DNA of 45,187 nt from a virus, in IMG/VR virus record IMGVR_UViG_3300035698_002903, positions 1 through 45,187 of that record; one strand, given 5' to 3'. Positions 1,144 to 45,187 of this stretch are shown here, piece by piece; within the stretch, counting starts at the first letter, position 1, and each line of letters begins with the position of its first letter. The notes beneath the pieces are model-generated. The model was not told where the DNA came from, searched no databases, and saw only the letters and a list, made by a program, of their open reading frames with translations. The translations under genes were made by a program, and so were the position numbers.

Positions 1144-2751
1144 ATGAATGAACGTCCGAATATAGAATCGGTACTCAACGATGTTGTAACAGTCAGTCCT
1201 CCTTATCTAGGGAATCCTATCGTTACTTACCTTACAGACAAAGTAGACGCACTAGGCGTAACCCTAACAGTCAAAGGAAATGATGGATTCTCTAATAATG
1301 ACTATCTTATTCTTGAAGAAGTAGGCAATAAGAAAGCAGAGATAGTTAAAATAGGTTCAGCTCCAAGCTTAGGAACTTCCTTAACAGTAGGCGCAGCCGT
1401 ATATGCTCATGGTATAGGTACTAAAGTAACTTTGATTCGTTATAACCAAGTAAGAATCTACGGCTCAAGTACAGCAACAGATACCGCCCCTTCAGATTAT
1501 ACAGGAGATTTGGAAGACTTAGATGTGCAGAACGGTAAGAATATAATAAAAGTACCTACAGCCGATATAGAAGACTACTATTATGCACGTTATTATCACG
1601 AACAAGGTACAGCTTATTCAAGTTATTCTGATTCAGTAGCGGCTACAGGTCTAACTCCAAACTCAAGAGGAGAGATTAAAAAAGAATTTCTATCAATGTA
1701 CAACGAAGGAGACGAGGGCAAGCCTGATGAATTGATTACTGATGATTGGCTAAATAGATCAATAAACAGATGGCAAAGAGAACTTTCTAAACGTAGAAGA
1801 TACTGGAACGTATTAAAAGATACAGTAATAAACGACCTAACAGAAGATACACAAGGCTATGATCTACCTACAGATATGCAGGAATACAGCAACGATTCAA
1901 TTATCTCAGCTAAAGTAAGGGCAGAAATTGACATGACCCCTATAGATCAAACAGTATTCTCTAATAAGACTTATAGCTACATAGGCTCAACAGTTAGTAC
2001 AGCAGCAGCAGTAGCAGACACTACTCTTGTTTTAAGCGACTCTAGCGACTTTACACAACTAAAAGGTACAAGTTACTGTAAAGGAGTTAAAATCGGTTAT
2101 ACATTGAATACAGAGTCCACAGCTACATTGTCAGGAATAACAGCTTGTACAGCTATAACAGCATTTGCTGATGCTGGAAGTGGCTCAACTACTGTAACGG
2201 CTTCAGGACATGGATATAGTAATGGAGATACGGCTTATATTGGGTCTACTAGGAATTACGATGGTAAGTATACGGTATCAGGTGTGGCAGGAACGGCCTT
2301 TAATATTGTGAAAACATTTGTAGCCGATGATGCGACAGGTGCGACTTCAACCGTAGACACCTCAATTACTGAAGCTTTGAGTGTAGGTGATGAAGTTTGG
2401 CAAGAATATACAAGTGGACAGCCTGTAAATTTCATTGTTGATCCAGAGAGTAAACAAATTAAACTCAATCCTATCCCTGATAGTACATGGGATTTAAAGA
2501 ATATGATTATTGAGTATTGGAGAAAGTTTGTTGATTTAAGCGATGATGCTGATGAAACCTTATTCACTAATCCAGAGAATTGTTATCTTTACTTAAATTA
2601 TCAAGTAGCTATTCGTAGAAAACTAGATCAGCAAGAGATCTTGACTCGTAAAGCTTTATGGGACGCTGACTTAGAGGAGTTAGTTAGTGAAGATCCAGAT
2701 TTTAAAGAAATTCGTATTGAACCTAATAATTTATATCGTAGAACCCGTTAA
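1144..2751 (+). CDS. Putative neck / head-tail connector structural protein
   Basis: 535 residues. The first ~160 residues are beta-rich. A helical segment around residues 178-230 (EIKKEFLSMYNEG through NRWQRELSKRRRYW) resembles the helical core of connector or adaptor proteins. A Thr/Ser/Gly-rich insert at about 280-420 looks like one or two Ig-like or beta-sandwich domains. The last ~100 residues are mixed helical with many acidic residues. The beta-propeller protein follows two bases after its stop, an order seen in podoviruses where connector and tail-tube or stabilisation proteins are adjacent. The role is inferred from composition and position, not from a diagnostic motif. The start is the ATG at 1144, preceded by TAACC. 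Confidence 0.5.
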   Translation: MNERPNIESVLNDVVTVSPPYLGNPIVTYLTDKVDALGVTLTVKGNDGFSNNDYLILEEVGNKKAEIVKIGSAPSLGTSLTVGAAVYAHGIGTKVTLIRYNQVRIYGSSTATDTAPSDYTGDLEDLDVQNGKNIIKVPTADIEDYYYARYYHEQGTAYSSYSDSVAATGLTPNSRGEIKKEFLSMYNEGDEGKPDELITDDWLNRSINRWQRELSKRRRYWNVLKDTVINDLTEDTQGYDLPTDMQEYSNDSIISAKVRAEIDMTPIDQTVFSNKTYSYIGSTVSTAAAVADTTLVLSDSSDFTQLKGTSYCKGVKIGYTLNTESTATLSGITACTAITAFADAGSGSTTVTASGHGYSNGDTAYIGSTRNYDGKYTVSGVAGTAFNIVKTFVADDATGATSTVDTSITEALSVGDEVWQEYTSGQPVNFIVDPESKQIKLNPIPDSTWDLKNMIIEYWRKFVDLSDDADETLFTNPENCYLYLNYQVAIRRKLDQQEILTRKALWDADLEELVSEDPDFKEIRIEPNNLYRRTR

Positions 2752-2753
2752 TT

Positions 2754-4175: not shown

Positions 4176-4183
4176 AGCAAAAT

Positions 4184-6208
4184 ATGCAAATAGACTACCT
4201 AGAATTAGGATATGACAGCCATTTACAAAGATCAATCTTTGATACTGTTGGCGAATTTGAGTCTAACGCGCTTACTCAGAATGGTGTAAGTTCAATGTTT
4301 CCTGCTGGTAGCATACCTTATTCTAGTACAGCATTAGCAGAATTAGTCCCTAATGAAGATATACAAACACAAGACTTTGTAACAGGCGTAAGCGGTTGGC
4401 AAATACAAGGCGAGGGTACGGCTGAATTTAACGATGTTACTATAAGGGGAACAATATACGCTACTCTAGGAGAGATAGGAGGATGGAGTATTGACGCAAC
4501 AAGGATATATTCAACTAATATAGATATTGATAGCGACAATGAATGGATCAAGAGTACGAATTATGTAACAGGAGTTTCTGGGTTTTCAATAAGTGCTGAT
4601 CTAGTTGAGGCAGAAAATATAATTGCAAGAGGAATTCTTAAGGGGACTACATTCCAATATGATGTAGTTTCTGCGGTAGGCGGACAACTTTTAGTGAGCA
4701 ATGCAGATGTATTAGATAGCGATATGACAGCTCTTGATGCTTCAACATTGACTACTAAGGCTACGACTACTTGGGCTGTAAATGATATGCTTTTAATTCA
4801 AGCCATTACGGCTTCAGGAATAGAGGTTGAATATTTGAGAATAACTAACATAGCATCAGCCCCTACATATACCGTTACAAGAGACCTAAAAGGTGATTAT
4901 ACTTCAAATGTTAATCCTATCTGGCAAGCAGGAACAACAATTTCAAAGATAGGGGAAAGTGACGGAGCAGCAACTTATGCAGGAGGATGGCTACGATTAT
5001 ATGGAGAAGGAACGAACAGTCCTTATTATTCAGTCTTTTCCCGAACAGGCGTAGCTTATAACGCTTACTCAGAAAGAGTTAGGCTAGGAAACCTAAATGG
5101 TATAGGAGGACAGTCCTCTGATACATACGGGATATTCATGGGTGATTTTTCAACAGGACAATATGCTATGTATGATGATGTGAGTGGGGACTTTGTTGTT
5201 AATGGATCAAGTCTTTTGAACGAAGACATCTTTGGTGACGGATCAGATGGCGATGTAACGATAAGTGCAAACACTACACTTGCTGGAGATATGTATTATG
5301 ATAATCTAACTGTAGATAGTGGGAAAATTTTAGACATTGGCGGGTATAGGATTTTCGTAAAAGGAATACTAACTAATAATGGAACTATCCAAAGAGATGG
5401 AAATGATGGAGGAGATGCAACTGGCCCATTGAGTGCTGGACGAGGAGCTGCTGCAATCGCTTTAGCTTCTGGATCTTTAGTAGGTGCTTTGGCTGGTGCA
5501 ATAGGTGGTGCAGGTGGCACAAACGGAATAGGGGGGATTGGTTCGCCTGGAGAAAGCCCAACTGCTGCAATAAGAGCTTATAGAGATGGTAAGTATGGAG
5601 CTGCTGGTGGAAATGGTGGAGCAATTACCCCAACTATTGCTGGTGGAGCTGGTGGAGTAGGGAACACGGCAGTAAATCCAGTTCTTGAAATAAGAACATC
5701 AATATTTGCTTTAATACAGGTTGAGTTTACTCCTGACATGGATTCTGCAATGGGAGCTATTTATAGTGTTTTAAGTTGTGATGGAGGCGGAAGTGGAGGA
5801 GGAGGAGGAGCTGGATATACTAATTTTTCTGGAAATGGCGGTGGCGGCGGTGGTGGTGGTAGTGCTACGACTGGAGGAACTGTTTCTATATTTGCAAGGG
5901 AAATAATAAACACAGGAACTATTTCTTCCAATGGAGGAAAAGGTGGTGATGGTGCTGATGGTGAAGATGCGGTAAGTGCTAATCCTGCTGGTGGCGGTGG
6001 TGGTGGCGGTGGAGCTGCTGGTGGTGGTGGTGGTTTTGTAATCTTAGTTTATGCAAAAATCACAAACACAGGAACAATTTCTGCTAGTGGAGGACTTAAA
6101 GGACTTGGTGGAACAAAAGGAGTTGGAGTGAATGGATCTTCTGATGGACTAGATGGAAGTGATGGGAATGATGGAAATGATGGAGAAGTAATAACCCTAC
6201 AAGTATGA
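4184..6208 (+). CDS. Tail fibre/adhesin with polyglycine-rich C-terminal domain
   Basis: 674 residues. Residues ~1-330 have fibre-like beta repeats: two related modules near GVSGWQIQGEGTAEF and GVSGFSISADLVEAE, and GEIGGWSIDATRIYS. Residues ~350-420 are a beta-helix-like stretch. From about residue 425 to the end there are many glycine runs, up to eight in a row, separated by short strand segments such as TNTGTISSNGG. Glycine-rich motifs of this kind build the polyglycine-II sandwich of receptor-binding adhesins such as T2-type gp38. The local base composition is richer in G than in neighbouring genes. The stop TGA overlaps the next ATG. It probably binds the host surface. Confidence 0.65.
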   Translation: MQIDYLELGYDSHLQRSIFDTVGEFESNALTQNGVSSMFPAGSIPYSSTALAELVPNEDIQTQDFVTGVSGWQIQGEGTAEFNDVTIRGTIYATLGEIGGWSIDATRIYSTNIDIDSDNEWIKSTNYVTGVSGFSISADLVEAENIIARGILKGTTFQYDVVSAVGGQLLVSNADVLDSDMTALDASTLTTKATTTWAVNDMLLIQAITASGIEVEYLRITNIASAPTYTVTRDLKGDYTSNVNPIWQAGTTISKIGESDGAATYAGGWLRLYGEGTNSPYYSVFSRTGVAYNAYSERVRLGNLNGIGGQSSDTYGIFMGDFSTGQYAMYDDVSGDFVVNGSSLLNEDIFGDGSDGDVTISANTTLAGDMYYDNLTVDSGKILDIGGYRIFVKGILTNNGTIQRDGNDGGDATGPLSAGRGAAAIALASGSLVGALAGAIGGAGGTNGIGGIGSPGESPTAAIRAYRDGKYGAAGGNGGAITPTIAGGAGGVGNTAVNPVLEIRTSIFALIQVEFTPDMDSAMGAIYSVLSCDGGGSGGGGGAGYTNFSGNGGGGGGGGSATTGGTVSIFAREIINTGTISSNGGKGGDGADGEDAVSANPAGGGGGGGGAAGGGGGFVILVYAKITNTGTISASGGLKGLGGTKGVGVNGSSDGLDGSDGNDGNDGEVITLQV

Positions 6209-6510: not shown

Positions 6511-6512
6511 TT

Positions 6513-8306: not shown

Positions 8307-8326
8307 ATAATATTTAACTTAATAAT

Positions 8327-9397: not shown

Positions 9398-12300
9398 ATG
9401 GCATTTTTAGATTTTACATTAAAGAACGCAGCTAAGGCTATTGAGAAGAAGAAACCTCAAGAGGCTATGCGGATTATGGATTTGATTAAAAAGAAAAAAA
9501 TACAAACAAGCTTCCCTACTAGAAGAGGTGTACCTGTAAATAAGCCAAGTTCTACAAAAACCCAACTTCCTCAACAGACACAAGTTGGAAGGACTTTAGA
9601 TTTTATAAACCAGATAAGACAGAAGCAGCCACAGCCAGTACAATCTAATTTTATGCCAAGTTTAAAGCCTACACAGCTTTCGTCTATTCCTAAAACTCCT
9701 GAACAAAAAGCTTACACAGAAGAATACCAAAGAAGATTTAAGTTAATGCAGAATAACGTCAGCACTAAGATTGGATCATTAGAATCCCAGGGCAATAAAT
9801 TAAAACAGCTTGAGAAGTCTGGAGATACAAAAGCGTATAATAGACTTGTTCCTTCTTATAATAATCTTCTTAAAGAGGTTAATGGTAATGTGAAAACATA
9901 CAATGCTATAGCTGAGGATGGTTTTAGTCTTGGTGGGGGAAAGTTTTATGGAGAACCAGCATGGAAAAATACTAAGTTTTCTGACTTTGATAAGGCAGAA
10001 GAATATCTGGGAGTAGGTAGGGATGAAGAAGGTAGCCGAAGGAAAGGGTACTTAGAGAGGAAGGTTGAAGAACAGGATTTGTTTAACGACTCAAGCATAA
10101 CACAGGCTACAATAGATTCCGCAAAGGAAGCTTATGGAAGAGCAGAGAGATTCTTTAATGACCCAACCCCAGGAGGAGCTATTAAGACCTTATGGGGTGG
10201 CGTAAGAACAGTGCTCACTCCTGCCGCTACACCATTTATTGCAGCAGAGGGTATGCCAGTAATAGGAGTAGGTGTGTCTGTTCTTGGTGATGTATACACA
10301 GAGGGGATTGTTCCTGTATCTAGTGTTCTAGTTGACCAAATTCCAGGAGAGTCAGAGCAGATGATCTCTGTTAAAGAAGGGCTAAAAGAAGTAGTTTCAG
10401 ATGTCGTGTTCATGGCACTCTTAGGTGGAGCATTTAAGGGAATAAACATGAAGGTTGGTGAGATACGATATAAAAACGGTAAGGTAGACTTCTCTTTTAA
10501 ACCTTCCGAAGCAATGGAAGCATGGAAGCGAAGTGAAGCAGGTGAACCCCCAACTACTCAAAGGGCTGAAGCTATGGTTGAGTTTATTAAAGATTCATCT
10601 AGGCAATTAAAAGAAAATCCAAAAATGATTCTTGATAAGTTGAAGGAACTAGAAGCTGGTGATCTCAAAGGAGGCAAAGAGCTTACAGTAGATGTTAGCA
10701 AGAAATACGTAGTAGAGCTTGCTGAGAAATGGAAAGATGTAACTAACCAAGAGATACCAGAGTTTATCAAAGACGTAGCTTCAAAAAGCCCTACAGCCTC
10801 AAAATCTATGATGGACATACTAAACAACGCAGGAAGCTTCAAAGAACAAAGACTAGCAGGGCTACAAGACCCTTTAATTCCTGGGCAAAGACCTGGACTA
10901 GAGAAACCTGCGCCATTGCCTGACGATAAAACAATGATTGGTGTTCATAATTTAAGTGAATCTAATTTGATTTTTGCAGATAAATTAGGAGGGTTAGCTA
11001 ATCCGTCATTAGCTCTGGTTGAGCCTAGCAAACAAGGGTTTGAGAATTTTGGAGAAATAACATTGGTTGCGCCAAAGGATATGGTTGATCCAAGGGCAAT
11101 GTCTAAGGGTGAAGCCTTTGGTGCAGATGTTTATAGTCCAAGATTTCCTTCTGCCGATTATCAAGTTGATTACAAAACTAGACAGAAGATAGTTGACATG
11201 TTATCCGAACACGAGAAGCTCGTTGATGAAAGTTCTAGTAATCTGGATTTAAGTGATGCAATAGATAAAGATTTAGAAAACTCATCATTAATGATGGTAG
11301 AATTTTTAAAAGAGAAGAAGGGTGTTAAGCCTAATATTGTTAAAGAGAATGGCGAAACAGATAGATATAAAACCAAGAATGCTTTGCGGGAGCAAATAGA
11401 AGAAATTGGCAACGAAGAATTCGTTGATTATATAGATGATATTATTACTTCTAATGGAATAGAAAGGAAGTTCTTTGCAGGGTTTACGCCGTCTGGTCAA
11501 AAAAGATTTAAACCATTTAATGTTGATGTAGCCTCTAAGTTAATGAAAGGGGATATCCAGGGAGGAGAAAATTTCTTTTATGGGCTTGGTAGTGTTAGGG
11601 CTAAACTTGCGCCAAGATTTAAAAGTCTGACAGAAATAAAAAAAGCTAAAGATAAAATTGTAAACAGGGAAGAGTTGGATAAAATTATAAAAGAAAATGA
11701 TAAAGAATTCTCAGAAATACTTGATGAGATTGATAAGTACGCAAAGAATAAAGACGATAATCAGTTCACCGAATATGACAGACAGGCAAGTATTTTAGCT
11801 GACTATCTTGCAAAGGTTGACATAGAATTCTTTAACCAAAAGTTTCCAGGAGTTCCAGATAGTTTGAGGGCTAGAATGGAAAAGTTTGCAGATCTATTAA
11901 GGACTATGCCTACAGAGTATTTTGAGGTTAAATATAAAAGACCTGTAGAGCTAAATGAATTTAATTTTGCAGTAGCCCCAGACACTATATCCTCAAAGGC
12001 TAGAAAGATTTTAGAAGATAAAGGTGTTCCAATTATTGAATATAAGAAAGGAGATGAAGGGTCTAGACGTGAAGCCATTATACAAGCTATGGAGGGGAAA
12101 GTTCCAGAAGGAACATTAAAAACAACAAACTTTGCTTTCTTAGGAGGTAAGAAGAAGATAACCCCACAAGAGTTAGCTGAAAGAGATCTAAGAACCATAA
12201 TACAATCTGGTGTTAAGGCTAAAGGAATATCACAGAAAGCACTTAAGGATGTTATTAAAAGTGAAACAGGTGCAAGCAGCTTAACTAAGAAGCTTGACGA

Positions 12301-14952: not shown

Positions 14953-14967
14953 TTTAACCATATAATT

Positions 14968-15112: not shown

Positions 15113-15730
15113 ATGAATAAGACATCAATCAACGTACATCATTCAGCGATTTTATCGCTAGATGGAGCAGAACAGTTTGATATGATAGATGAAGGACATA
15201 GAGAAAGATGGGGAGGTGAGACTAAATCAAGGATGGGGCATTGTTGTGGCTACCACTATGTTTGTGAAAGATCAGGATTTATATCACAAGCTAGAAATGA
15301 TGATGAGATAGGAGCTCATAATAACAACGGTGTTAAGTGGGTAGACGGCTGGAGAAGATCAGCTAACTATTACGCTATAGGTATTTGTTTCGCTGGTAAC
15401 ATGAGTGAACAAGAACTAACAGACGAACAGAAGATAGCTGGATATGAATTGATCAAACAATTACAAGGCAAACACAATATCCCTGATTCGGAGGTTTTGC
15501 CACATAGACACTATAAGCCTACTCAATGTCCAGGTAACAGACTACCTAACGATATTATGGGATATTTAAGAGGAGAGTATGAGAGGTTAAAGGAGGACAC
15601 CCCTAAGTGGGCTAAGGAAGGAGTTAAGTTCACAAGAGATAATAAGCTCATCAATGAATTTTCAGGAAGGGAGATCAAAGATTATGAACTAGCAACTATA
15701 TTACACAGATTCTATAACCTAAATATATGA
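15113..15730 (+). CDS. N-acetylmuramoyl-L-alanine amidase endolysin
   Basis: 205 residues. Cleaves the amide bond between N-acetylmuramic acid and L-alanine in peptidoglycan to lyse the host. Amidase_2/PGRP-type features are visible: INVHHS near the N-terminus (zinc His 9), VLPHRHYKPTQCPGN at residues 128-142 with His131 and Cys139 as the remaining zinc ligands, and the structural stretch YYAIGICFAGN. About 50 C-terminal residues (from KEGVKFTRDN) may be a short wall-binding tail. No signal peptide, so it needs a holin. The stop TGA overlaps the start of the putative holin gene, a classic lysis cassette. Confidence 0.9.
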   Translation: MNKTSINVHHSAILSLDGAEQFDMIDEGHRERWGGETKSRMGHCCGYHYVCERSGFISQARNDDEIGAHNNNGVKWVDGWRRSANYYAIGICFAGNMSEQELTDEQKIAGYELIKQLQGKHNIPDSEVLPHRHYKPTQCPGNRLPNDIMGYLRGEYERLKEDTPKWAKEGVKFTRDNKLINEFSGREIKDYELATILHRFYNLNI

Positions 15731-16222: not shown

Positions 16223-16863
16223 GACGCAAAGTGGCTACGATACGCTACTTCAATGTTACTTCTCTCGTTCAAATTATCCTCTGTATCAAAAGTTCCTCTA
16301 GCCTGTATCTTTCTAGCCGAGCGGGTCACGCTCTCACACGAAACATCTTTGTAGACTTCCCATACCTTCCTTACAAGGTCGTTTCTACGTTTTACTGATC
16401 TAAGTTCGGGGAACTCTTTTAAGACGTTGTAAACGACTCTTCCAGTCCCTTTTAGTTTTAGCTTGATTAGCTCTCTTTGGGCCTGATGCGTGAATAAGTT
16501 CATAGGTGAGGGGTTAATTATAGGATTATTTTTTCTTTGATAGCCAGTAGAGCCTATAGGGTCTTTGTTTAACTTTTTCTGCCCATAGAGCTCCCTATAG
16601 CAGTCAGAGCAACTAGAATAGAGCCCATCCTTCTTAGAGCCATCCTTTCTAAACTCAGAAACTTCTTTTACTTTTTTACACTTAGTGCATCTTTTGTACC
16701 CATTAGCTAGTCGCTCTTGCAATCTTATCTTGCCAGCTTTAACTTTATAGGCTCTTTGACATCTTTTGCATGATGGGTATAGGTAATCTCTTTTTGATAT
16801 ATCTGACGTGAACTCGCTTGTGGCAAGTTCTAGTCCGCATTTTGAGCATATCTTTGTAGGCAT
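16219..16863 (-). CDS. Protein with two tandem zinc-finger modules, possible regulator
   Basis: 214 residues. Two copies of a CxxC-x(21-22)-CxxC module lie in the first ~90 residues: one with CSKCG and SCKRCQ, the second with CTKCKK and SCSDCY. The copies align over their whole length (SEF, K-D-x-LY-x-SC), so they arose by duplication. Zinc ribbons of this kind are found next to HNH or endonuclease VII domains, but no HNH core is visible here. The C-terminal ~80 residues are basic and helical. It overlaps the HNH gene upstream by 34 bases. Possible DNA-binding or late-gene regulator; function not shown. Confidence 0.55.
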   Translation of the reverse strand: MPTKICSKCGLELATSEFTSDISKRDYLYPSCKRCQRAYKVKAGKIRLQERLANGYKRCTKCKKVKEVSEFRKDGSKKDGLYSSCSDCYRELYGQKKLNKDPIGSTGYQRKNNPIINPSPMNLFTHQAQRELIKLKLKGTGRVVYNVLKEFPELRSVKRRNDLVRKVWEVYKDVSCESVTRSARKIQARGTFDTEDNLNERSNIEVAYRSHFAS

Positions 16864-17499: not shown

Positions 17500-17789
17500 A
17501 TCTTCTTACGGTTATATTCTACTTCTTCTATAGAGAGTGCCACATATCCATCTTTTAATCCTTCAGGGAAGTGCAATACATGAGTAATCCTATAAGGTGT
17601 TTCGTGGATAAGATAATCATCCTCAAATCTCGCTTCCGCTGGCTTGTCTAAGCTTGTCCACAATGTCTTAAAAACAATTTCATCGCCTACTTGATAATCT
17701 CTATCATTCTTCCTTATTTCGCAAAGTTTACTCCCATCTATAGTCCTTTCATGATACTTGTTTTCAATTTTCAACTTATGTCTTTTCAT
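17496..17789 (-). CDS. DUF3850/ASCH-like (PUA-fold) protein
   Basis: 97 residues. The pattern HKLKIENKYHERTIDGSKLC, EIRKNDRDYQVGDEIVF, YRITHVL and GYVALSIEEVE is that of the DUF3850 group of the ASCH/PUA-like fold, thought to bind RNA or modified nucleotides. Common in phages, with unknown molecular role. Coupled by ATGA to the RusA-like gene. Confidence 0.7.
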   Translation of the reverse strand: MKRHKLKIENKYHERTIDGSKLCEIRKNDRDYQVGDEIVFKTLWTSLDKPAEARFEDDYLIHETPYRITHVLHFPEGLKDGYVALSIEEVEYNRKKI

Positions 17790-18669: not shown

Positions 18670-18702
18670 AGTATGAGTTGGTTATAATTTATAATTAGTT
18701 TA

Positions 18703-19102: not shown

Positions 19103-19133
19103 AAGGTTTTAGGGTTAATGGATATGATTATTT

Positions 19134-19849: not shown

Positions 19850-19887
19850 ATAATATTTTGGTTAGGTTTGCACAATGTGCGAATTAG

Positions 19888-20184: not shown

Positions 20185-20203
20185 AATGTTTTTTGGTTAT
20201 TTA

Positions 20204-21149: not shown

Positions 21150-21173
21150 AGTGAGGGGTTATATTTATTTTTG

Positions 21174-21649: not shown

Positions 21650-22263
21650 TAGAAAGCGAGGTTAGATAATTGTTCGTCTATTTCCTTAAGAGCTGTTTCC
21701 TGATATTCTTTTAAGAATGTTATGTCTAGTTCATAGTCTTCTCTAAGAAGTTCTATCACAACCATTGGAAGTATTTGGATTCGTGGGTCATACAAAACAA
21801 AGTATAACTTCTCAAGATCTTCATTAACTATAAAGTATTGCATTGCCTGTTCCTCATACTCTTTAGGAATTGATTCTTCAAAGTGTGCTTGCAGATGTTT
21901 TGCAGATGCTAAACACTTAATTTCAACTGCTTCCTTGTATTTGTCATCAATCTTTATGAGTCCATCAGGAGAAAGTGCTATATCTTTGTTAAAATCGCTT
22001 ACACACAATCCTACACGCTCTACCTCTTTGCCCTTACTGTCTTCAAATAGCTCTATAGCTTCATCTTCCAGCCTATGTCCTCTTTCCATTGGATCTTCTT
22101 TTGGCTCTACTACTGCTATTCGTTCAGCCATTAGATTATAATATCCAATCTTTTTACCGCTTCCCCTCTTAACTACAATTCCATTTAGCTTAGATCCTGT
22201 GATTTTTCCTTTACGGCTCTCTAGCCATGCTTCTGAGTTTTGATCTTGTTCTAGTATTTTCAT
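21649..22263 (-). CDS. YqaJ/lambda-exonuclease-type 5'-3' exonuclease
   Basis: 204 residues. PD-(D/E)XK nuclease of the viral recombinase group: SEAWLESRKGKITGSKL near the N-terminus, MERGHRLEDEAIELF, SPDG with Asp100, and AVEIKC with Glu114 and Lys116 as the catalytic core. It would resect double-stranded DNA ends to leave single strands for the annealing protein. One-base overlaps with the annealing-protein gene before it and the NinB-like gene after it make a compact recombination operon. Length is usual for the family. Confidence 0.85.
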   Translation of the reverse strand: MKILEQDQNSEAWLESRKGKITGSKLNGIVVKRGSGKKIGYYNLMAERIAVVEPKEDPMERGHRLEDEAIELFEDSKGKEVERVGLCVSDFNKDIALSPDGLIKIDDKYKEAVEIKCLASAKHLQAHFEESIPKEYEEQAMQYFIVNEDLEKLYFVLYDPRIQILPMVVIELLREDYELDITFLKEYQETALKEIDEQLSNLAF

Positions 22264-22754
22264 TATTTAGTTAGGTTAGATTTTACTTCGTCTTTAACAG
22301 AAACAACGTTTTTATCTCCCATTAAAGACCCAAGGGATAAGTAGCATTCTTTTAGTTCATCAATAGTCTTACAGTCACGGAGAGAAGATATAGCCTCAAG
22401 TTTCTTATTCTCAAGATACTCGTTAAATTCTTCCATTTCCTCACTAGATGCTATTTCTCCACTTGCCATATATCCAAGCATTGCTAATGCTCTACCAACG
22501 GCTATTGATTCTAGCTTTTCAAATGCCTTTTGTCCTTTATTCTCTCCTACTGCGTGTCCTGTTGCTTCTGCTGATTCTGGTTTAGATTTGTCTTTTAGAA
22601 TCCTAGCTTTAAACATTATGTTTACACCTTCTACCTTTGGTTCAGTTTCAATCAGTCCGTTCGGACAATCTTCTCTGAATAGCTTAATCCTTTCAGATAC
22701 TTTTGCGTAGTCTGCACCACCGCCTATTTTTATTGTTTCTGCTTTTTTATTCAT
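22263..22754 (-). CDS. Erf/Sak-type single-strand annealing protein
   Basis: 163 residues. DYAKVSERIKLFREDCPNG, then ARILKD, ATGHAVGENKGQ and FEKLESIAVGRALAMLGY match short phage annealing or mediator proteins of the Erf/Rad52-like superfamily. It would bind single-stranded ends made by the exonuclease coded just downstream and promote strand annealing. The C-terminal ~50 residues form a charged helix, possibly for partner binding. The gene order annealing protein-exonuclease-NinB-like is a recurrent phage arrangement. Confidence 0.75.
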   Translation of the reverse strand: MNKKAETIKIGGGADYAKVSERIKLFREDCPNGLIETEPKVEGVNIMFKARILKDKSKPESAEATGHAVGENKGQKAFEKLESIAVGRALAMLGYMASGEIASSEEMEEFNEYLENKKLEAISSLRDCKTIDELKECYLSLGSLMGDKNVVSVKDEVKSNLTK

Positions 22755-22926: not shown

Positions 22927-23045
22927 GCTAGGTTTTGGTTATCTTCATAATCCATTCGTTTCTCAATCATACATTCTCTGCTGAACTGTTCGTCAGCCGA
23001 GAGTTGATGTTCTAAGACATCTTCTTGATACATTGGTTTTTCCAT
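22923..23045 (-). CDS. 40-residue acidic protein
   Basis: ATG at 23045 with TTAACC 9 bases upstream; the TGA overlaps the ATG of the zinc-finger gene (ATGA). Acidic helical peptide (MEKPMYQEDVLEHQLSADEQ). It is the first gene after the strong promoter at 23137-23165. Confidence 0.5.
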   Translation of the reverse strand: MEKPMYQEDVLEHQLSADEQFSRECMIEKRMDYEDNQNLA

Positions 23046-23136
23046 TAGGTTGAGGGTTAATGATAGTTGATCTTGAATTTGTTTTATGCTTCGTTAGTGT
23101 CTAGTGACTGAAGCTTTCCTTTTCTTGATCATCTAC

Positions 23137-24505: not shown

Positions 24506-24516
24506 AGTTAGCTGGG

Positions 24517-24729
24517 TTAATTGTTTTTTATTAGCTCACTAAGTGTTTTCCTTAAGTCGTTCTTAAAATCCAACAGAAAATCTTTAGGGGCTTTTAGGTG
24601 TGTTGCGAAAGCATCTGCAAACAAAAGAGCTGCGTCAATGCAAGAACCTGCAATGTCTGCTTCCTCGCCTACCATCACTTTGTTTGAATAAATCGTTATG
24701 TTTTCATCTTCGTATACCTTGTTTTTCAT
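24517..24729 (-). CDS. Small hypothetical protein, 70 residues
   Basis: An N-terminal beta stretch (VYEDENITIYSNKVMVG) is followed by helices (DAALLFADAFATHLKAPK). ATAACC lies 10 bases upstream of the ATG at 24729. It overlaps the end of the previous gene by 26 bases. Function unknown. Confidence 0.5.
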   Translation of the reverse strand: MKNKVYEDENITIYSNKVMVGEEADIAGSCIDAALLFADAFATHLKAPKDFLLDFKNDLRKTLSELIKNN

Positions 24730-24895
24730 ATTTTAATTCGGTTATAAATTGTTCAGCTGTTTCGGCTGGTTTAGATGCATTCTTATATAGGGCAACAATA
24801 GATTCAGCCTGAAGAGCCCTACGCCTCCATTGTAAGAGTTGCTTGTGTAACCATTCTTGGTTTTCTTTTTGTATTCCGTGGTTGCAATCTTTCAT
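24704..24895 (-). CDS. First gene of the leftward operon, 63-residue helical protein
   Basis: Start chosen at ATG 24895 (MKDCNHGIQKENQEWLHKQL). A second ATG at 24910 lies within the -10 box of the best promoter. The protein is helical with a basic middle (QWRRRALQAESIVALYK). If transcription starts about seven bases after the -10 box, the message would be nearly leaderless. No family recognised. Confidence 0.5.
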   Translation of the reverse strand: MKDCNHGIQKENQEWLHKQLLQWRRRALQAESIVALYKNASKPAETAEQFITELKYEKQGIRR

Positions 24896-24940: not shown

Positions 24941-24977
24941 TGTTAAGTGTTAACGTGTATTTAACGTGTACTTAACA
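24941..24977. repeat. Operator-like palindrome with internal repeats
   Basis: TGTTAAGT (24941-24948) and ACTTAACA (24970-24977) are perfect inverted repeats. Between them TTAACGTGTA-type units occur twice (24950-24959 and 24961-24970). The core TTAAC appears in both orientations. Typical of an operator bound by a dimeric repressor, or of a small iteron-type origin. Confidence 0.55.
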
Positions 24978-25110: not shown

Positions 25111-25212
25111 ACTACACGACATGAAAATCAATTTAGAACACAGATTATAGACTCACACCTGCTTGGCTTGTCGTGTAGTACTTCTAGCTGAGTGGGTGCG
25201 AGTTTATAATCT
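25111..25212 (+). promoter_or_regulatory. Interlocked inverted repeats (pseudoknot-type leader) before the replication gene
   Basis: Arm A ACTACACGACA (25111-25121) pairs perfectly with TGTCGTGTAGT (25169-25179). Arm B AGATTATAGACTCACACC (25142-25159) pairs with GGTGCGAGTTTATAATCT (25195-25212), 18 positions with one G-U and one A-C. The order A-B-A'-B' is that of a pseudoknot. The last arm ends just before AAAAGG, the only Shine-Dalgarno-like site of note, and the ATG at 25222. A regulatory role on initiator translation is inferred. Confidence 0.55.
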
Positions 25213-27118: not shown

Positions 27119-27140
27119 AACTAATCCTTAACCGTTAAAT

Positions 27141-27498: not shown

Positions 27499-27520
27499 AT
27501 ATGTACATTAACCAATAGCC

Positions 27521-27703
27521 ATGCGCTGCCCAGACTGTAACAATAAGACAAGAGTAAGATCAACAGTAGGAAACAGAAGGTATCGTTTGTGCAAGACCTG
27601 TAACCTAAAGTTTGTATCATTAGAAGTATCTAGAGACGAATACAGATATTTAAAGATAAAAGAAAAGGAAACTAATAGATTAAGGAAGGAAAAATATAAC
27701 TAA
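27521..27703 (+). CDS. Zinc-ribbon protein, 60 residues
   Basis: MRCPDCNNKTRVRST and RLCKTCNLKFVS form a CxxC...CxxC zinc ribbon like the N-terminus of NrdR or Ogr/Delta-type regulators; the rest is a basic helix (KIKEKETNRLRKEK). TTAACC lies 7 bases upstream. It could be a transcription regulator for the late genes. Confidence 0.6.
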   Translation: MRCPDCNNKTRVRSTVGNRRYRLCKTCNLKFVSLEVSRDEYRYLKIKEKETNRLRKEKYN

Positions 27704-27714
27704 CCAATAAAATC

Positions 27715-29046: not shown

Positions 29047-29067
29047 ATAATTTATAACCATATAAAT

Positions 29068-30556: not shown

Positions 30557-30572
30557 TATAACCAACAGCCAC

Positions 30573-33270: not shown

Positions 33271-35271
33271 ATGCCAGTAAACTCAAAAGAGATAGATAAG
33301 ATACCTGCTTACAAACCTTCCAAGGAAGATGAGCAGCTTGTTTTAGATCTAATGGAGAGAATAAGTGATCTACAAGAACACCGTGCAGGTCTAATGGCTA
33401 ATCCTTATGATGATAGTGATAAGGCACGTACAATAGAGGATACATGGGACTACTGCGATCAAGTATCTTTACCACATAAATACTCACATAAAGAAATGAG
33501 AGATTGGATGGCAGACAATAGTCATCCTTTAGCTTTTGCTAAGATGGATACAGCAGTTTCAATCCTAATGGCCAAGAACCCTGAAGTAGAGATAGCACCT
33601 AGAGAAGAGAACTTTGACTCTAAAGCAAGAATACTTGAAGCTTTATACTCTATAAGCTGGGATAAAGGGAACGGTAGACAACAAATGATTAAGTTTATGA
33701 ATGGTACAGCTAAGTACGGATTCATGCCTGCTAGGGAGTACCATAGATACAAAACTAAGATCATAGACGAGATTGTAAGTTATGATCCTAAGACTGGTAA
33801 ACACAAAACAGAAGAAGTAGAAATAACAGAACATGATGAAGCATACTTTGAGGTTCTACCTATAAGAGATGTATGGATAGATAACAGAGCTAAACCTTAT
33901 GATGAAAGCTCTATTAGAGATTGGGCATGGCAGAAGGTATATGACTACTCAACATTCCAAATAGAATTTCCTAAAGAAAGATTCCCTAATGCTAAGTTTG
34001 TACAACCTAATTATGGTGGGCATAATAAAGACGAAGGAGAGAAGAATAACGATGAAGTAGGAGAGAAAGCCGTTAGACTCTTTTTCTATGAAGATATAGA
34101 GAATAATGAGTTCCTTATTACAGATGGATTGGTAAAAGTATATCAAGGCCCACTAATCAACAACCAACTTAGTTTAGTCTATGCGATGTGGAAACAACGT
34201 AACGAACAGACTATTTACGGCATAGGATTACCAGAGATACTAGAAGGTAATCAGGAAATGCTAGACAGGATAGGGAATATGTCACTCAATCAGATAGTCC
34301 TTACAATAGGAGGAGCAGGATTTTATGACGGTAAAGGGAACGTGACTCAAAATGATATGACGCTTGAGCCTAAACTTAAGAAAGTACAAAACCCACAAAG
34401 TATAGTATTCCCTAAAATACCAGATGTAAGTCAATCAGTATTTAAAATGATAGAAGATATACGTAATGAAGCTGACGAGACAAGTGGAGTTACTAAAGCA
34501 TTAGGAGGAGAACAAGTAGGAAAGACTCTAGGAGAAGCTGTATTGAACCGTGAAGCAGGACTAAGGAGACTATCAACACCATTACAGAATATTGAATTTG
34601 CATTAGAACGACACGCTAGACTGCGTGTTGATTTGATTCAACTTATATATTCCAACGCTCCTAAGACTGATATGGTAATAGATGAATTCGGATCAGTAAT
34701 AAGCGAGAAGCTTTACCAAGAATACCTAGAAGAAGTAGCTAATAAGGGAGCTAACACATTAGCAACAGCTCAGAAGTTCCCTGTATTAGAGGATGGATCA
34801 CTTGTAAGAAACCAATTTAGACAAGAACCTTTACCATTAGAGAAGACAGAAGAAGGAGAAGTACAACCAACAGATGATGATACAATCCTAGAAATCACAC
34901 CTGAAGAGATCAGAGGTAACTACGATGTAAGAATAAGAGCATTCAGTACAATCCCTATGAGTCAGACACTTGAAGAGAGTAAAGCCCTAGAAACATACAA
35001 CATATTACTAAGCAATCCATACGTAGACGCATACAAAGCCACTGCACGCTTCCTAAGAGCTAGGAAGGAAGATCCAGACGATTGGCTACTTTCACAAGAA
35101 CAAATCACAGAGACACAAGGGCAAGCAGCAGAATTACCACCAGATATAGAAGGAGCAACAGGAGGATTTGTTGGAGGTGGAGCAGGAGGAGGCAAGATGA
35201 GTAAACAACCACAGCAATCAGCAGCAGGAGGTGGAGTTAGCGCACAAGTAAGTAAATCTATAACCGTTTAA
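33271..35271 (+). CDS. Portal protein
   Basis: 666 residues, in the size range of podovirus portals. Features: an N-terminal region (DTAVSILMAKNPEVEIAPRE), the crown/stem part YFEVLPIRDVWIDNRAKPYD, the wing part YAMWKQRNEQTIYGIGLPEI with LEGNQEMLDRIGNMSLNQIV, and the stretch NEADETSGVTKALGGEQVGK typical of this portal family. The C-terminus has a Gly-rich segment. Twelve copies form the DNA channel at one capsid vertex and bind the terminase. It follows terL by one small gene, the usual order. Confidence 0.85.
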   Translation: MPVNSKEIDKIPAYKPSKEDEQLVLDLMERISDLQEHRAGLMANPYDDSDKARTIEDTWDYCDQVSLPHKYSHKEMRDWMADNSHPLAFAKMDTAVSILMAKNPEVEIAPREENFDSKARILEALYSISWDKGNGRQQMIKFMNGTAKYGFMPAREYHRYKTKIIDEIVSYDPKTGKHKTEEVEITEHDEAYFEVLPIRDVWIDNRAKPYDESSIRDWAWQKVYDYSTFQIEFPKERFPNAKFVQPNYGGHNKDEGEKNNDEVGEKAVRLFFYEDIENNEFLITDGLVKVYQGPLINNQLSLVYAMWKQRNEQTIYGIGLPEILEGNQEMLDRIGNMSLNQIVLTIGGAGFYDGKGNVTQNDMTLEPKLKKVQNPQSIVFPKIPDVSQSVFKMIEDIRNEADETSGVTKALGGEQVGKTLGEAVLNREAGLRRLSTPLQNIEFALERHARLRVDLIQLIYSNAPKTDMVIDEFGSVISEKLYQEYLEEVANKGANTLATAQKFPVLEDGSLVRNQFRQEPLPLEKTEEGEVQPTDDDTILEITPEEIRGNYDVRIRAFSTIPMSQTLEESKALETYNILLSNPYVDAYKATARFLRARKEDPDDWLLSQEQITETQGQAAELPPDIEGATGGFVGGGAGGGKMSKQPQQSAAGGGVSAQVSKSITV

Positions 35272-35281
35272 CCAAAACAAT

Positions 35282-35480: not shown

Positions 35481-35687
35481 ATGGACAAGAAAGAAATCAA
35501 AAAACTAGCCCAATCAGGAGTATTTAAGCCATTCCTAGAAATAGTACAAGGAATAGCTGATGAATATAAGGATGTAGAGTTTGACTCAGATCCACATAAG
35601 GTAGCTTACAACCTAGGTAAGCGGGATATGATAATGGGTTTACCACAAGAACTAGACGAAACAATTAAACAAATAGCCAATGATTAA
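35481..35687 (+). CDS. Small hypothetical protein, 68 residues
   Basis: Acidic, mostly helical (KKLAQSGVFKPFLEIVQGIA; DPHKVAYNLGKRDMI). It overlaps the co-chaperonin gene by eight bases. It occupies the place between portal and head genes where small packaging or head proteins are common. Unknown function. Confidence 0.5.
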   Translation: MDKKEIKKLAQSGVFKPFLEIVQGIADEYKDVEFDSDPHKVAYNLGKRDMIMGLPQELDETIKQIAND

Positions 35688-35928
35688 ACCATTAAACGGA
35701 AAAGTATTGATTAGAATGCTTGAGAAAGAACAGGTGAAATCTGTACTCATCCTTAAAGAAGAAGAAGAGAAGGAACGTGGAGAGATACTAGAGATAGCTG
35801 ATGATGTAATGATAGTAAAGAAAGGAGATAAGGTATTGTTCAGTCCTTACGGAATAAAAAAGGTGGAAGTGGACGAAGAAGAACTATTGATATGTGAGGC
35901 AGATGAATTACTAGCCAAATTATCATGA
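35680..35928 (+). CDS. GroES-like co-chaperonin
   Basis: 82 residues. KPLNGKVLIRMLEKEQVKSV, GEILEIADDV, VKKGDKVLFSPYG and EELLICEADELLAKL follow the Cpn10/GroES pattern strand by strand. The mobile loop region (about residues 17-32, VLILKEEEEKERGE) is short and charged. It would cap the host GroEL during folding of the phage capsid protein, as gp31 does in T4. Its place in the head operon supports that. ATGA overlap with the next gene. Confidence 0.7.
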   Translation: MIKPLNGKVLIRMLEKEQVKSVLILKEEEEKERGEILEIADDVMIVKKGDKVLFSPYGIKKVEVDEEELLICEADELLAKLS

Positions 35929-36254
35929 AATGGAAAATAGGAAAATTAGGAGTTGATAGAGCAGGACCAGAGACACTTTGTCTGAAGATAGGTAAAGAGA
36001 AAGCCATAGTATCAACAGGAGATCTAGCAGCAATGGTAGAAGACGAACTCCCAGAAGATGAAGGAAACGAATTTGGACTTAGAACAGAGACTAAATCATT
36101 ATCTAAAGGGAAGATGCGAGTGATTATAGAAGCTCAGAAGGATATGAAGAAAGGTGAGCCAGTATGTTTCCTACTAGATGTAGCGAAATACCTAGATAGT
36201 AAGGGTATGCCAACAGGAATTAGAACATCAGATTCAGGAATTTTATTACCATAA
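35925..36254 (+). CDS. Hypothetical head-operon protein, 109 residues
   Basis: Starts in an ATGA overlap with the co-chaperonin gene. Beta-rich composition (KWKIGKLGVDRAGPETLCLK; GKMRVIIEAQKDMKKGEPVC). No family recognised; coupling to the chaperone and nearness to capsid genes suggest a role in head assembly. Confidence 0.5.
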   Translation: MKWKIGKLGVDRAGPETLCLKIGKEKAIVSTGDLAAMVEDELPEDEGNEFGLRTETKSLSKGKMRVIIEAQKDMKKGEPVCFLLDVAKYLDSKGMPTGIRTSDSGILLP

Positions 36255-36264
36255 CCATTATAAA

Positions 36265-37657: not shown

Positions 37658-37714
37658 AACTCTCTAAAAAGCTATAGCAAGGGTGAAAATATTATATTTT
37701 TAACCAATGCAAAT

Positions 37715-38152: not shown

Positions 38153-38177
38153 TATTATTTAATTAACCAATTATAAG

Positions 38178-39172: not shown

Positions 39173-39231
39173 AGGGCTAGTCTAGCACTAGCGAAAGGAG
39201 TGTTTCAGGCTGTTTCACTCTGACTAGCCCT
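39173..39231 (+). other. Hairpin after the major capsid gene
   Basis: AGGGCTAGTC (39173-39182) pairs perfectly with GACTAGCCCT (39222-39231), and GAGTG (39198-39202) with CACTC (39216-39220) inside. No T-run follows, so it is not a standard rho-independent terminator. It may protect the capsid mRNA 3' end or dampen downstream expression. Confidence 0.5.
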
Positions 39232-39313
39232 CCTAAACAGCCACGCTGAGTCCTTCTCTGCACAAGTCTTGGTAGAGAGTTGCACAGCACAATTATTATT
39301 TAAAAGACTTATT

Positions 39314-42040: not shown

Positions 42041-42054
42041 AGGAAGCTTATTCC

Positions 42055-42107
42055 TCCCTTCTAACTCTGCCCCGACCTTTCACGCTTAAAGGGGCAGACT
42101 AGAGGGA
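42055..42107 (+). other. Hairpin between virion genes
   Basis: CTGCCCC (42067-42073) pairs with GGGGCAG (42091-42097); outside them TCCCT (42055-42059) pairs with AGGGA (42103-42107). Loop of 17 bases. No T-run. Resembles in position and style the hairpin after the capsid gene. Confidence 0.5.
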
Positions 42108-42129
42108 AATAACAATTAACAATTATAAT

Positions 42130-42438
42130 ATGGCACGATTTATAAACTCACAACAGATTTACGTAGAAACAGTAACTATCGCTGTGGCTGGTACAGCTCA
42201 ACAGGCTACATCAGTTCCAGTACCAGACGGTATATCAGTAGTTTACTTAGCTCATCCAGATAATACTGGATATATCAAGATAGCTGATACAGAGGCGAAA
42301 GCACAAGCAGCTATTGGCGTAGGGAATGTTCCATTGCCTAATGATAAAGCAGCAGCTTATCAAATCCAAGACCCATCTATTCCTTATATTGACGCAACAG
42401 TATCAGGGGAAAGAGTTATCGTGACAATGGAGAAATAA
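42130..42438 (+). CDS. Small beta-rich structural protein, 102 residues
   Basis: MARFINSQQIYVETVTIAVA, then VPVPDGISVVYLAHPDNTGY and GERVIVTMEK: a compact beta-sandwich type. It lies between two large fibre-like genes. Similar small proteins act as fibre bases or capsid decorations. TTAACA lies 8 bases upstream. No firm family. Confidence 0.5.
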   Translation: MARFINSQQIYVETVTIAVAGTAQQATSVPVPDGISVVYLAHPDNTGYIKIADTEAKAQAAIGVGNVPLPNDKAAAYQIQDPSIPYIDATVSGERVIVTMEK

Positions 42439-42456
42439 TAATTAACCAAATTTAAC

Positions 42457-45187
42457 ATGGACATAATTGATTCATGGCGAGCAGGAGGAACAGGCAGAGG
42501 CCCATATACTTTTCAAAGTAGGGCTATCACCCAAACACCCTTTACCGCTAAAGGATATTTAGGACAAACAGCTAACTTACAAGAATGGCAAGATTCTACA
42601 GGTATTGTACTTGCTTCAATATCTTCAACAGGGAAATTATCATCTATTGGACAAGACATAACTGGAAATTTAGATATTAGTGGAGATGTTGAGATAGGTG
42701 GTAATCTTACAGTTTTAGGCAGTACAACTATTTATGTTGACTATGTTGTCACAGGTACAGTAACCGCTAATGGACAGTTCTTAGGTAAAGATGGTTCAGG
42801 AATAAGCCCTTCTTATTCATTTATTGACGAGGACAAGACAGGAATGTATCTTGATGGACTTAATAAAATAGGGTTCTCTACAGCAGGTAGTCGTAGATTC
42901 CAGATTTCTAATACAGGCGCAACTATATATTCTGATACTAATGATGGCTCAACATATCCATTAAGTGTATTAGATAGCGATAGTGTAGAAGTTGCCTATG
43001 TAGATAGTGACGGTGGAGCAAATTTTAACTCTATATCTGGGGTAAGCGCAATATACACTTCTACATTGTTTGTGGCAGATGGGACGGCTGCTAGCCCTTC
43101 TGTTGCATGGACAGCCCACCCTACAACAGGAATATATAATAACGGTGGAGACCAAATAGCTTTTGCTGCTGCTGGAAATTTAGTAGCTTATTTTACAGCT
43201 AACGATGTTAGATTCAAAAAGATAGTTACATTCAATGGTGGTATTCCTCTTTATGTTGAGGGGCAAGAAACTGATACTGCTGATGCTGTAGTATTGAGAG
43301 TAAGTAATCAAACAGAATTAACAACTGCAGGATCAAGAATACAAGAATGGTATAGTTTAAATACTTATACAGATGCTTATTTAAAAGCCTATATTGACAA
43401 AGATGGAGGATTTGTAGCTGATAACTTTGATACTCGTAATGACGATAGTACAGGAGCAGAGAGTTTAAACGAAACAGACTTCGCAACAACAACTGATTGG
43501 ACTGCTGCTGAAGATTTCACAGTAGGAAGTGGTTATGCAGAATATAACTGGAATACTGGTAATGATTCAACTATTACGCAGGCACAAGCTGATCTAGCAA
43601 CTACTCTAGTAGGGGATAGATGGTATGTATTTGAATATGACGTAACTTATACGAGTGCTCAGGTTAATAATATAACTTGTACAATTCCTGCTACTGTAGC
43701 TGAAACTGCCACTGTATTGACAATAAATTCAACAGGGAATAATAGAAAAGTATATTTTAAGACAGTAGCAGCTCCAACAGACTTTGTAGTCAAAGTTGTT
43801 GACTTAGGTGTTACTACCGATTCAGTATTCCGAATGGATAACTTGAGCGTAAAGGAAGCTCTAGGCGGAGATATGAACGCTGCGAATGTTATTGCTCGTG
43901 ATACCTTAACGGCTGATACAATAACAGATGGTACGGCTTCAATAAATAGCGGAGCATTCACAGGAATGGCCTCAATAACGGATGGAACAGCGACTTGGAC
44001 AGGTGGAGCTACAAATACCCTAACTGGGTTTGCTTCAATAAGTGGTGCATCTTTAAATGTCAATGCGAGTTCAGATACAGCCTTAACTTTGGGGGGATTA
44101 AAAGCTCAAATAACTCCAACGACTTTGACTTCTGGTGGAGCTGACGATTTTGGAATTGGTATTAGTCAATCATTAAATGATACTGGTGTTGCTGGTGGTT
44201 CTGATACTTATAGAATGATTAAGGGAATATTAACAGAAACAGACGTAACAGGTTGGAACGATGTTTATTTGATGGATTTGTTAGTAGGTGCTAGTAGTAA
44301 ATTTAAAGTGGATGATTCGGGAAATGCTACAGTAGCAGGGACTTTGACTGCTGTAACTCTAACAGATGGTACAGCTTCATTAAACGTAGGGGCATTGACT
44401 GGAATAACAAGAATGTCAATTGCAGATACTTTATCTGATGGAGAGATATTACTAAATACTACCACAACTTCAAATGGACTTGGAGCAGATGAAATGCTTT
44501 TTGGAAGACAAACAAATATAATTACTGCTGCTGGCGATGATGCTAGTTCTTTATTGTTTGGAGAATATTTTAATCTTGATAAGACCGCAGGAGGTGCTGG
44601 ATTTAATATAGGTATTACCTTTACAGGCGATGTTTGGGACCAAAGTATAGTATCACTTGACCAAGACTTAAATATTGGAAGTGTGACAATGTCTGCTGGT
44701 AATGCAAACGATATTACTTTAGAAGCGTCTGATGCTTCCGATACTGGTGATGGTGGTTCTATAAGTCTTAAACTAGGGGCTGCCGACACTCAAGGAAATG
44801 GAGGAAGTTTATATATAGAACCTGCTGCTGGAGCTGGTACTGGAACTGCTGGTAATGTAATTTCTAACTGGAATTTGAGCGAAAGTGCTGCTTATGGGTA
44901 TTTCGCAATAGGTACAAATAGCGTAACAGATGCAAGATTAGTTGTTGGAGGCTCAACGAATAACGGAACTACAAATATAATAAAGGGAGTTGATAGCGAT
45001 AACGCGAGTGTGTTTACTTTAGATACTGATGGTAAAGCATACTTTGCTAGTAAAGTTAGGATTGGTGATACCTCAACTTTCGGTAATGAATTATTCCACA
45101 TAGCTTCTGAAACTGATGCAGATATGGTATTAGAACACGCAAAAGATGATGGCGACCCATTATTTATATTTGATAGAGCAATGGGAG
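42457..45187 (+). CDS. N-terminal part of a large fibre/spike-like virion protein (continues at window start)
   Basis: ATG 42457 with TTAACC 9 bases upstream; no stop in 910 codons. MDIIDSWRAGGTGRGPYTFQ, then repeated short beta units (GDVEIGGNLTVLGSTTIY; GTVTANGQFLGKDGSG) and, at about residues 330-475, a carbohydrate-binding-like region (TTDWTAAEDFTVGSGYAEYN through VFRMDNLSVKEA). Later parts are collagen- or beta-helix-like. With the piece at 1-503 it would have 1077 residues. Likely tail fibre or spike; the carbohydrate-binding reading is only by composition. Confidence 0.65.
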   Translation, partial: MDIIDSWRAGGTGRGPYTFQSRAITQTPFTAKGYLGQTANLQEWQDSTGIVLASISSTGKLSSIGQDITGNLDISGDVEIGGNLTVLGSTTIYVDYVVTGTVTANGQFLGKDGSGISPSYSFIDEDKTGMYLDGLNKIGFSTAGSRRFQISNTGATIYSDTNDGSTYPLSVLDSDSVEVAYVDSDGGANFNSISGVSAIYTSTLFVADGTAASPSVAWTAHPTTGIYNNGGDQIAFAAAGNLVAYFTANDVRFKKIVTFNGGIPLYVEGQETDTADAVVLRVSNQTELTTAGSRIQEWYSLNTYTDAYLKAYIDKDGGFVADNFDTRNDDSTGAESLNETDFATTTDWTAAEDFTVGSGYAEYNWNTGNDSTITQAQADLATTLVGDRWYVFEYDVTYTSAQVNNITCTIPATVAETATVLTINSTGNNRKVYFKTVAAPTDFVVKVVDLGVTTDSVFRMDNLSVKEALGGDMNAANVIARDTLTADTITDGTASINSGAFTGMASITDGTATWTGGATNTLTGFASISGASLNVNASSDTALTLGGLKAQITPTTLTSGGADDFGIGISQSLNDTGVAGGSDTYRMIKGILTETDVTGWNDVYLMDLLVGASSKFKVDDSGNATVAGTLTAVTLTDGTASLNVGALTGITRMSIADTLSDGEILLNTTTTSNGLGADEMLFGRQTNIITAAGDDASSLLFGEYFNLDKTAGGAGFNIGITFTGDVWDQSIVSLDQDLNIGSVTMSAGNANDITLEASDASDTGDGGSISLKLGAADTQGNGGSLYIEPAAGAGTGTAGNVISNWNLSESAAYGYFAIGTNSVTDARLVVGGSTNNGTTNIIKGVDSDNASVFTLDTDGKAYFASKVRIGDTSTFGNELFHIASETDADMVLEHAKDDGDPLFIFDRAMG

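What the first reader, a model, noticed from the sequence alone, without database searches (positions are those of the whole stretch)
1144..42457. A (T/A)TAACC motif replaces the Shine-Dalgarno site before many genes
Seen: TAACC lies 7-10 bases before the ATG of at least 21 genes on both strands, for example 1144, 14968, 27141, 27521, 27715, 29068, 30573, 35282, 36265, 37715, 38178 and 42457 on plus, and 18669, 19102, 19849, 20184, 21149, 22926, 23045, 24505 and 24729 on minus. TTAACA or TTAACT variants precede 577, 8327 and 42130. GGAGG-type sites are nearly absent. In some cases the TAA of the previous stop is part of the motif, but in many it is not. The position is that of a ribosome-binding site. 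Inference: an alternative initiation signal suited to the host ribosome, an mRNA-processing mark, or a phage RNA-binding protein target.
Basis: partly seen in the sequence, partly recalled or inferred. Interest (0 to 1): 0.7.

Follow-up and report, generated by a model that had tools for sequence, protein, structure and literature searches.

The report
TAACC start signal in Shine-Dalgarno-less phages
This virus marks the starts of many of its genes with the short sequence TAACC, about eight letters before the start codon, instead of the usual bacterial ribosome-landing sequence; close relatives do the same while distant relatives use the usual signal, so it is most likely an adaptation to an unidentified host whose ribosomes, as in Bacteroidota, ignore that usual signal.

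Summary
TAACC ends 7-10 nt before the start of 24 of 68 called genes, against 7 of 844 other ATGs inside genes (p = 2e-23). Shine-Dalgarno (SD) sites stand before 0 of 68. All 21 listed sites check out. De novo motif search recovers (A/T)NTAACC with no prior.

The signal follows a phage clade. Viruses with 56-67% identity in portal or capsid protein carry TAAC before 35-78% of genes and almost no SD. Capsid relatives at 39% have neither. Most at 22-29% use ordinary SD sites. This points to host adaptation of translation initiation rather than a phage protein's target.

Sites aligned on the motif share no other element in the 45 nt upstream, and 7 of 24 lie inside the preceding gene, so promoters or processing sites fit poorly. 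The start regions match SD-independent initiation described for Bacteroidota: AA at -14 to -10, A at -3, little structure. Bacteroidota references carry TAAA/TTAA/TAAT there and almost never TAACC.

Best reading: a C-ended variant of the Bacteroidota-type upstream element. The host, and what on the ribosome reads the motif, are unknown. A new variant of a known kind.

The parts
1130..1134 (+). TAACC before ATG 1144
   Evidence: gap 9
6192..6196 (+). TAACC before ATG 6205, inside the preceding gene
   Evidence: gap 8
14955..14959 (+). TAACC before ATG 14968
   Evidence: gap 8
15715..15719 (+). TAACC before ATG 15727, inside the preceding gene
   Evidence: gap 7
27129..27133 (+). TAACC before ATG 27141
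   Evidence: gap 7
27509..27513 (+). TAACC before ATG 27521
   Evidence: gap 7
27701..27705 (+). TAACC before ATG 27715; its TAA is the stop codon of the preceding gene
   Evidence: gap 9
29055..29059 (+). TAACC before ATG 29068
   Evidence: gap 8
30559..30563 (+). TAACC before ATG 30573
   Evidence: gap 9
35269..35273 (+). TAACC before ATG 35282; its TAA is the stop codon of the portal gene
   Evidence: gap 8
36252..36256 (+). TAACC before ATG 36265
   Evidence: gap 8; TAACC kept before the L081 orthologue
37701..37705 (+). TAACC before ATG 37715
   Evidence: gap 9; TAAC kept before the L081 orthologue
38164..38168 (+). TAACC before ATG 38178 (major capsid protein, by homology)
   Evidence: gap 9; TTAACC kept before the L081 orthologue
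42443..42447 (+). TAACC before ATG 42457
   Evidence: gap 9
16512..16516 (-). TAACC before ATG 16503
   Evidence: gap 8
17510..17514 (-). TAACC before ATG 17499 (RusA-like), inside the preceding gene
   Evidence: gap 10
18680..18684 (-). TAACC before ATG 18669 (short ORF, not called as a gene here)
   Evidence: gap 10
19113..19117 (-). TAACC before ATG 19102
   Evidence: gap 10
19860..19864 (-). TAACC before ATG 19849
   Evidence: gap 10
20195..20199 (-). TAACC before ATG 20184
   Evidence: gap 10
21157..21161 (-). TAACC before ATG 21149
   Evidence: gap 7
21660..21664 (-). TAACC before ATG 21649 (NinB-like), inside the preceding gene
   Evidence: gap 10
22274..22278 (-). TAACC before ATG 22263 (RecE-like exonuclease), inside the preceding gene
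   Evidence: gap 10
22937..22941 (-). TAACC before ATG 22926, inside the preceding gene
   Evidence: gap 10
23055..23059 (-). TAACC before ATG 23045
   Evidence: gap 9
24515..24519 (-). TAACC before ATG 24505
   Evidence: gap 9
24740..24744 (-). TAACC before ATG 24729, inside the preceding gene
   Evidence: gap 10
564..568 (+). variant TAACA before ATG 577
   Evidence: gap 8
8315..8319 (+). variant TAACT before ATG 8327
   Evidence: gap 7
42117..42121 (+). variant TAACA before ATG 42130
   Evidence: gap 8

Best explanation
(U)UAAC(C), centred about 12 nt before the AUG, is a translation-initiation element of the mRNA that stands where the Shine-Dalgarno sequence normally stands. It is the local variant, with C after the AA, of the upstream adenine element used by hosts whose ribosomes do not use SD sequences, as in Bacteroidota. 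Shown: the motif, its fixed position, absence of SD, unstructured start regions, A at -3, conservation within a phage clade, and SD use by most distant capsid relatives. Inferred: that it raises initiation in an SD-blind host, probably a Bacteroidota lineage, by helping the 30S subunit hold the mRNA. Direct contact with ribosomal protein bS1 or the mRNA exit site is the most likely route and is untested.
For: Start-specific enrichment, p 2e-23, gaps 7-10. De novo recovery, LLR 91 bits vs 52 at most in 20 shuffles; L081 52 vs 31. SD 0/68. Start regions -2.0 vs -6.0 kcal/mol at internal ATGs, p 4e-20. A at -3: 69% vs 34%, p 2e-8. The AA of TAAC falls at -14 to -10, where adenines at -12 and -13 promote translation in Flavobacterium johnsoniae (PMC6847099); the same hallmarks for Bacteroidia are listed in PMC9976891. 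Orthologues at 39-77% protein identity keep TAAC: five of five sites compared with L081. Clade gradient: window, L002, L081, L296, L298, L300, L301 have TAAC at 35-78% of starts and SD in at most 1; L303/L304 neither; L305-L308, L310, L311 SD. Bacteroidota references lack SD and carry TAAA/TTAA/TAAT in the same place. The endolysin's phage hits are, for the largest part, Bacteroides/Parabacteroides phages (25 of 52 records).
Against: No host was identified. None of the Bacteroidota references clearly shows TAACC. Other homologies point elsewhere: DnaB to Peribacteria, RecE-like exonuclease to a TM7 phage. The Bacteroidota promoter TTTG/TANNTTTG is not enriched. Local AUG depletion is weak upstream (7 vs 11 +/- 2.9) and absent downstream. 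About two thirds of genes lack exact TAACC. In the more distant G001 (capsid 22-23%) the de novo search did not beat its shuffles, although TAAC at starts is strongly enriched there (17/39, p 4e-13).
Confidence: 0.7

Rival explanations
1. TAACC is part of a promoter (a -10-like box) that makes leaderless or very short-leader mRNAs for each gene.
For: A -10 box of a leaderless gene would lie at nearly this distance; PMC5397173 raises leaderless transcripts for Bacteroidota and cyanobacteria from C/A signals near -15.
Against: 63 motif-aligned sites from the family show no conserved base in the 45 nt upstream, no TTGACA-like box (3 vs 1 in the reversed control) and no TTTG excess. 7 of 24 motifs lie inside the preceding gene. 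The motif is commonest (78% TAAC) 9-29 nt after the preceding gene, where operon genes sit.
Confidence: 0.1
2. TAACC is read by base pairing with a ribosomal RNA segment other than the usual 3' tail, i.e. an SD-like duplex with a different partner.
For: Short fixed consensus with C as well as A, at SD-like spacing that varies by only 4 nt. From general knowledge, GGGUUAAGU occurs in a conserved 16S head segment of many bacteria and contains GGUUAA.
Against: From general knowledge, a six-base complement is expected somewhere in 16S by chance about a third of the time. PMC6107228 found no organism with a changed anti-SD matched by a changed SD. The host 16S is unknown.
Confidence: 0.12
3. TAACC is the target of a phage-encoded RNA-binding protein, or an RNase processing site, rather than of the ribosome.
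For: The phage encodes a DUF3850/ASCH-like protein called RNA-binding in PHROGs.
Against: That family occurs in many phages, most hits being mycobacterial and gordonial. No bS21, S1 or initiation factor was found among the small proteins. The motif precedes genes of every module on both strands, and it is tied to the AUG, not to gene ends.
Confidence: 0.05
4. The motif is a by-product of TAA stop codons and AT-rich junctions.
For: 5 of 24 motifs reuse the preceding stop.
Against: 12 are intergenic and 7 are inside coding sequence; the CC has no reason to follow a stop; shuffles and internal ATGs do not reproduce it.
Confidence: 0.02

Closest known systems
SD-independent initiation regions of Bacteroidota (Flavobacterium johnsoniae, Prevotella bryantii; PMC6847099, PMC3155529, PMC9976891)
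   Same: No SD, adenines at about -14 to -11, A at -3, weak secondary structure
   Different: Here the element is TTAAC(C), with C after the AA; the Bacteroidota references show TAAA/TTAA/TAAT instead
Shine-Dalgarno sequence
   Same: Short conserved mRNA motif, 7-10 nt before the AUG
   Different: Not complementary to the CCUCC tail; SD itself is absent from these starts
TAACTGA repeats before start codons in Beggiatoaceae and some Bacteroidota (PMC4679880)
   Same: TAAC-containing motif just upstream of start codons, proposed to act in translation
   Different: Direct heptamer repeats at limited gene sets; no TAACTGA repeats in the window

Membership tests
Bacteroidota-type SD-independent initiation region | SD sequences absent before genes | tested here: met
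   0/68 starts vs 67/844 internal ATGs
Bacteroidota-type SD-independent initiation region | Adenines at about -14 to -11 | tested here: met
   The AA of TAAC falls at -14 to -10
Bacteroidota-type SD-independent initiation region | A at -3 | tested here: met
   69% vs 34%
Bacteroidota-type SD-independent initiation region | Weak RNA structure around the start | tested here: met
   -2.0 vs -6.0 kcal/mol, p 4e-20
Bacteroidota-type SD-independent initiation region | Few other AUGs near the start | tested here: inconclusive
   7 vs 11 +/- 2.9 upstream, 17 vs 16 downstream
Bacteroidota-type SD-independent initiation region | TAAA-type A run as main upstream 4-mer (seen in the references here, not a published definition) | tested here: not met
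   AACC and TAAC are the top 4-mers instead
Bacteroidota-type SD-independent initiation region | Ribosome with sequestered anti-SD (host property) | not testable with these tools
   Host unknown
Shine-Dalgarno sequence | Complementary to the 16S 3' tail CCUCC | tested here: not met
   TAACC has no GGAGG-type match; such matches absent at starts
Leaderless promoter box | Conserved upstream promoter element at fixed distance from the box | tested here: not met
   No conserved position in 45 nt upstream of 63 sites
TAACTGA repeat family | Direct heptamer repeats | tested here: not met
   None in the window

The most novel reading that the evidence does not exclude
A bacterial lineage whose ribosome reads a specific UUAACC sequence through a contact other than the 16S 3' tail (a changed bS1 or exit-site protein, or another rRNA segment), with its phages matching it: a sequence-specific second code for start-site choice, not just a preference for A-rich unstructured RNA.
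Probability: 0.25. Interest if true: 0.8.

Novelty: new variant of a known kind. Interest (0 to 1): 0.45.

Why it matters
How SD-blind bacteria choose start codons is an open question; known cues are diffuse (A-richness, lack of structure). Here is a compact five-letter cue with nearly fixed spacing, kept before orthologous genes, in a clade whose distant capsid relatives mostly use SD. It gives a defined sequence to test in initiation assays, a possible clue to the hosts of unassigned phages, and a correction for gene callers that expect SD or A-runs.

Tried and rejected
Patescibacteria as host (suggested by the DnaB and exonuclease hits): TTAACC-N7-10-ATG counts in 145 genomes stay low (at most 72 per genome, mostly at or below the reversed control). 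Bacteroidota promoter TTTG/TANNTTTG: not enriched. Viral contigs fetched by one TTAACCAA-N-ATGAAAAA match: nearly all lack the motif at other genes; the exception L178 (12 of 31 starts TAAC, SD 0) is only distantly related. Phage-encoded bS21, S1 or initiation factor: none found. Bacteroidota chromosomes could not be reached: no handle for the genome search, and the one genome-contig scan, spent on DnaB, listed no Bacteroidota. A first EM run timed out and was replaced. No paper in the held library that I searched describes TTAACC as a start signal.

Full report
WHAT IS THERE. The window is a 45,187-base virus record that encodes small and large terminase subunits, a portal protein, a major capsid protein (by homology to a relative and to annotated capsids), an SU10-type adaptor, a DnaB-like helicase, a DnaD-like loader, a RecE-like exonuclease, NinB-, RusA- and methyltransferase-like proteins, an amidase and a GroES-like protein.

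STATISTICS. At called gene starts TAACC lies 7-10 nt before the ATG in 24 of 68 cases, against 1 of 236 in-frame and 6 of 608 out-of-frame ATGs inside the same genes (p 2e-23). It is the most enriched 5-mer before ATGs (29 vs 6.7), and dinucleotide shuffles of the window give 5.6 +/- 2.4 against 29. An unsupervised motif search on the upstream regions returns (A/T)NTAACC, mostly at gaps 7-10, with 91 bits against at most 52 in shuffles. SD-like sites are absent at starts (0/68) although they occur before 8% of internal ATGs. Of the 24 motifs, 12 are intergenic, 7 inside the preceding gene and 5 reuse its stop codon.

FAMILY. I looked for relatives by helicase, portal and capsid. Viruses whose capsid or portal is 56-67% identical (L081, L296, L298, L300, L301), and L002 with 76% helicase identity, have TAAC before 35-78% of genes and SD before at most one. 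The more distant G001 (helicase 45%, capsid 22-23%) has TAAC at 17/39 starts and no SD. Capsid relatives at 39% (L303, L304) have neither. Capsid relatives at 22-29% (L305-L308, L310, L311) carry ordinary SD sites. So genes of one structural family change their start signal between lineages. Where orthologous genes can be compared between the window and L081, all five with TAAC in the window at this position keep TAAC at the same place although the flanks have diverged. Among roughly 250 other loci collected for unrelated reasons, none comes near this frequency except L178, which shares only 26-29% identity in a few replication proteins.

WHAT KIND OF SIGNAL. Start regions are far less structured than internal ATG regions (-2.0 vs -6.0 kcal/mol), A at -3 is enriched (69% vs 34%), and the AA of TAAC falls at -14 to -10. 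These are determinants reported for F. johnsoniae and listed for Bacteroidia generally (PMC6847099; PMC9976891). Bacteroidota are the main group with SD in only about 1-2% of genes despite an intact anti-SD (PMC10783764). Bacteroidota plasmids and phages analysed in the same way (Bacteroides, Parabacteroides, Cellulophaga, Polaribacter, Flavobacterium, Emticicia, Haliscomenobacter, Sphingobacterium, Persicobacter, Adhaeribacter, Runella) have few or no SD sites (0-8%) and show mainly TAAA, TTAA or TAAT in the same window, with TAACC at 0-4% of starts. The phage element therefore looks like a C-ended counterpart of the Bacteroidota element. The step to a Bacteroidota host is inference: the endolysin resembles those of Bacteroides phages, but other proteins have nearest relatives elsewhere.

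ALTERNATIVES. Sixty-three sites from the family aligned on TAACC show no conserved position in the 45 nt upstream and no -35-like box; downstream only a second A (TAACCNA) and the ATG stand out. This argues against a promoter for leaderless mRNA. A phage RNA-binding protein or processing site is not excluded, but nothing supports it. Pairing with another rRNA segment cannot be tested without the host 16S.

LIMITS. Gene starts come from a simple codon-usage caller using the first ATG, so some starts are wrong, which dilutes the signal. Several loci overlap the same contig (L297 with L081, L299 with L301, L302 with L296) and were not counted as independent. The host was not found, and Bacteroidota chromosomes could not be searched. 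No step of the mechanism was tested by experiment.

Noticed in passing
window 42457-45187 joined to 1-503: The open frame at the right end continues in frame at the left end into one ORF of 1077 aa, suggesting a complete, circularly permuted genome.
   Followed up: partly
window 25142-25212: Very strong hairpin ending about 10 nt before the start of the DnaD-like gene 25222 (156-nt region -45.9 kcal/mol, z -4.2), no Rfam match; a leader or operator element.
   Followed up: partly
window 24950-24971: Tandem TTAACGTGTA(T/C) repeats in the divergent intergenic region; possible operator.
   Followed up: no
window 9398-14701: 1767-aa protein with a PBECR5 (phage Barnase-EndoU-Colicin-RelE-like nuclease) domain at residues 509-682.
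   Followed up: no
window 35680-35928: GroES-like co-chaperonin gene among the head genes.
   Followed up: no
L178 (IMGVR_UViG_3300033148_003971): A distantly related virus with TAAC before 12 of 31 genes and no SD; may share the host group.
   Followed up: partly
L084 (Peribacteria MAG contig): No SD-like site before any of 17 called genes and no TAAC either; start signal unclear.
   Followed up: no
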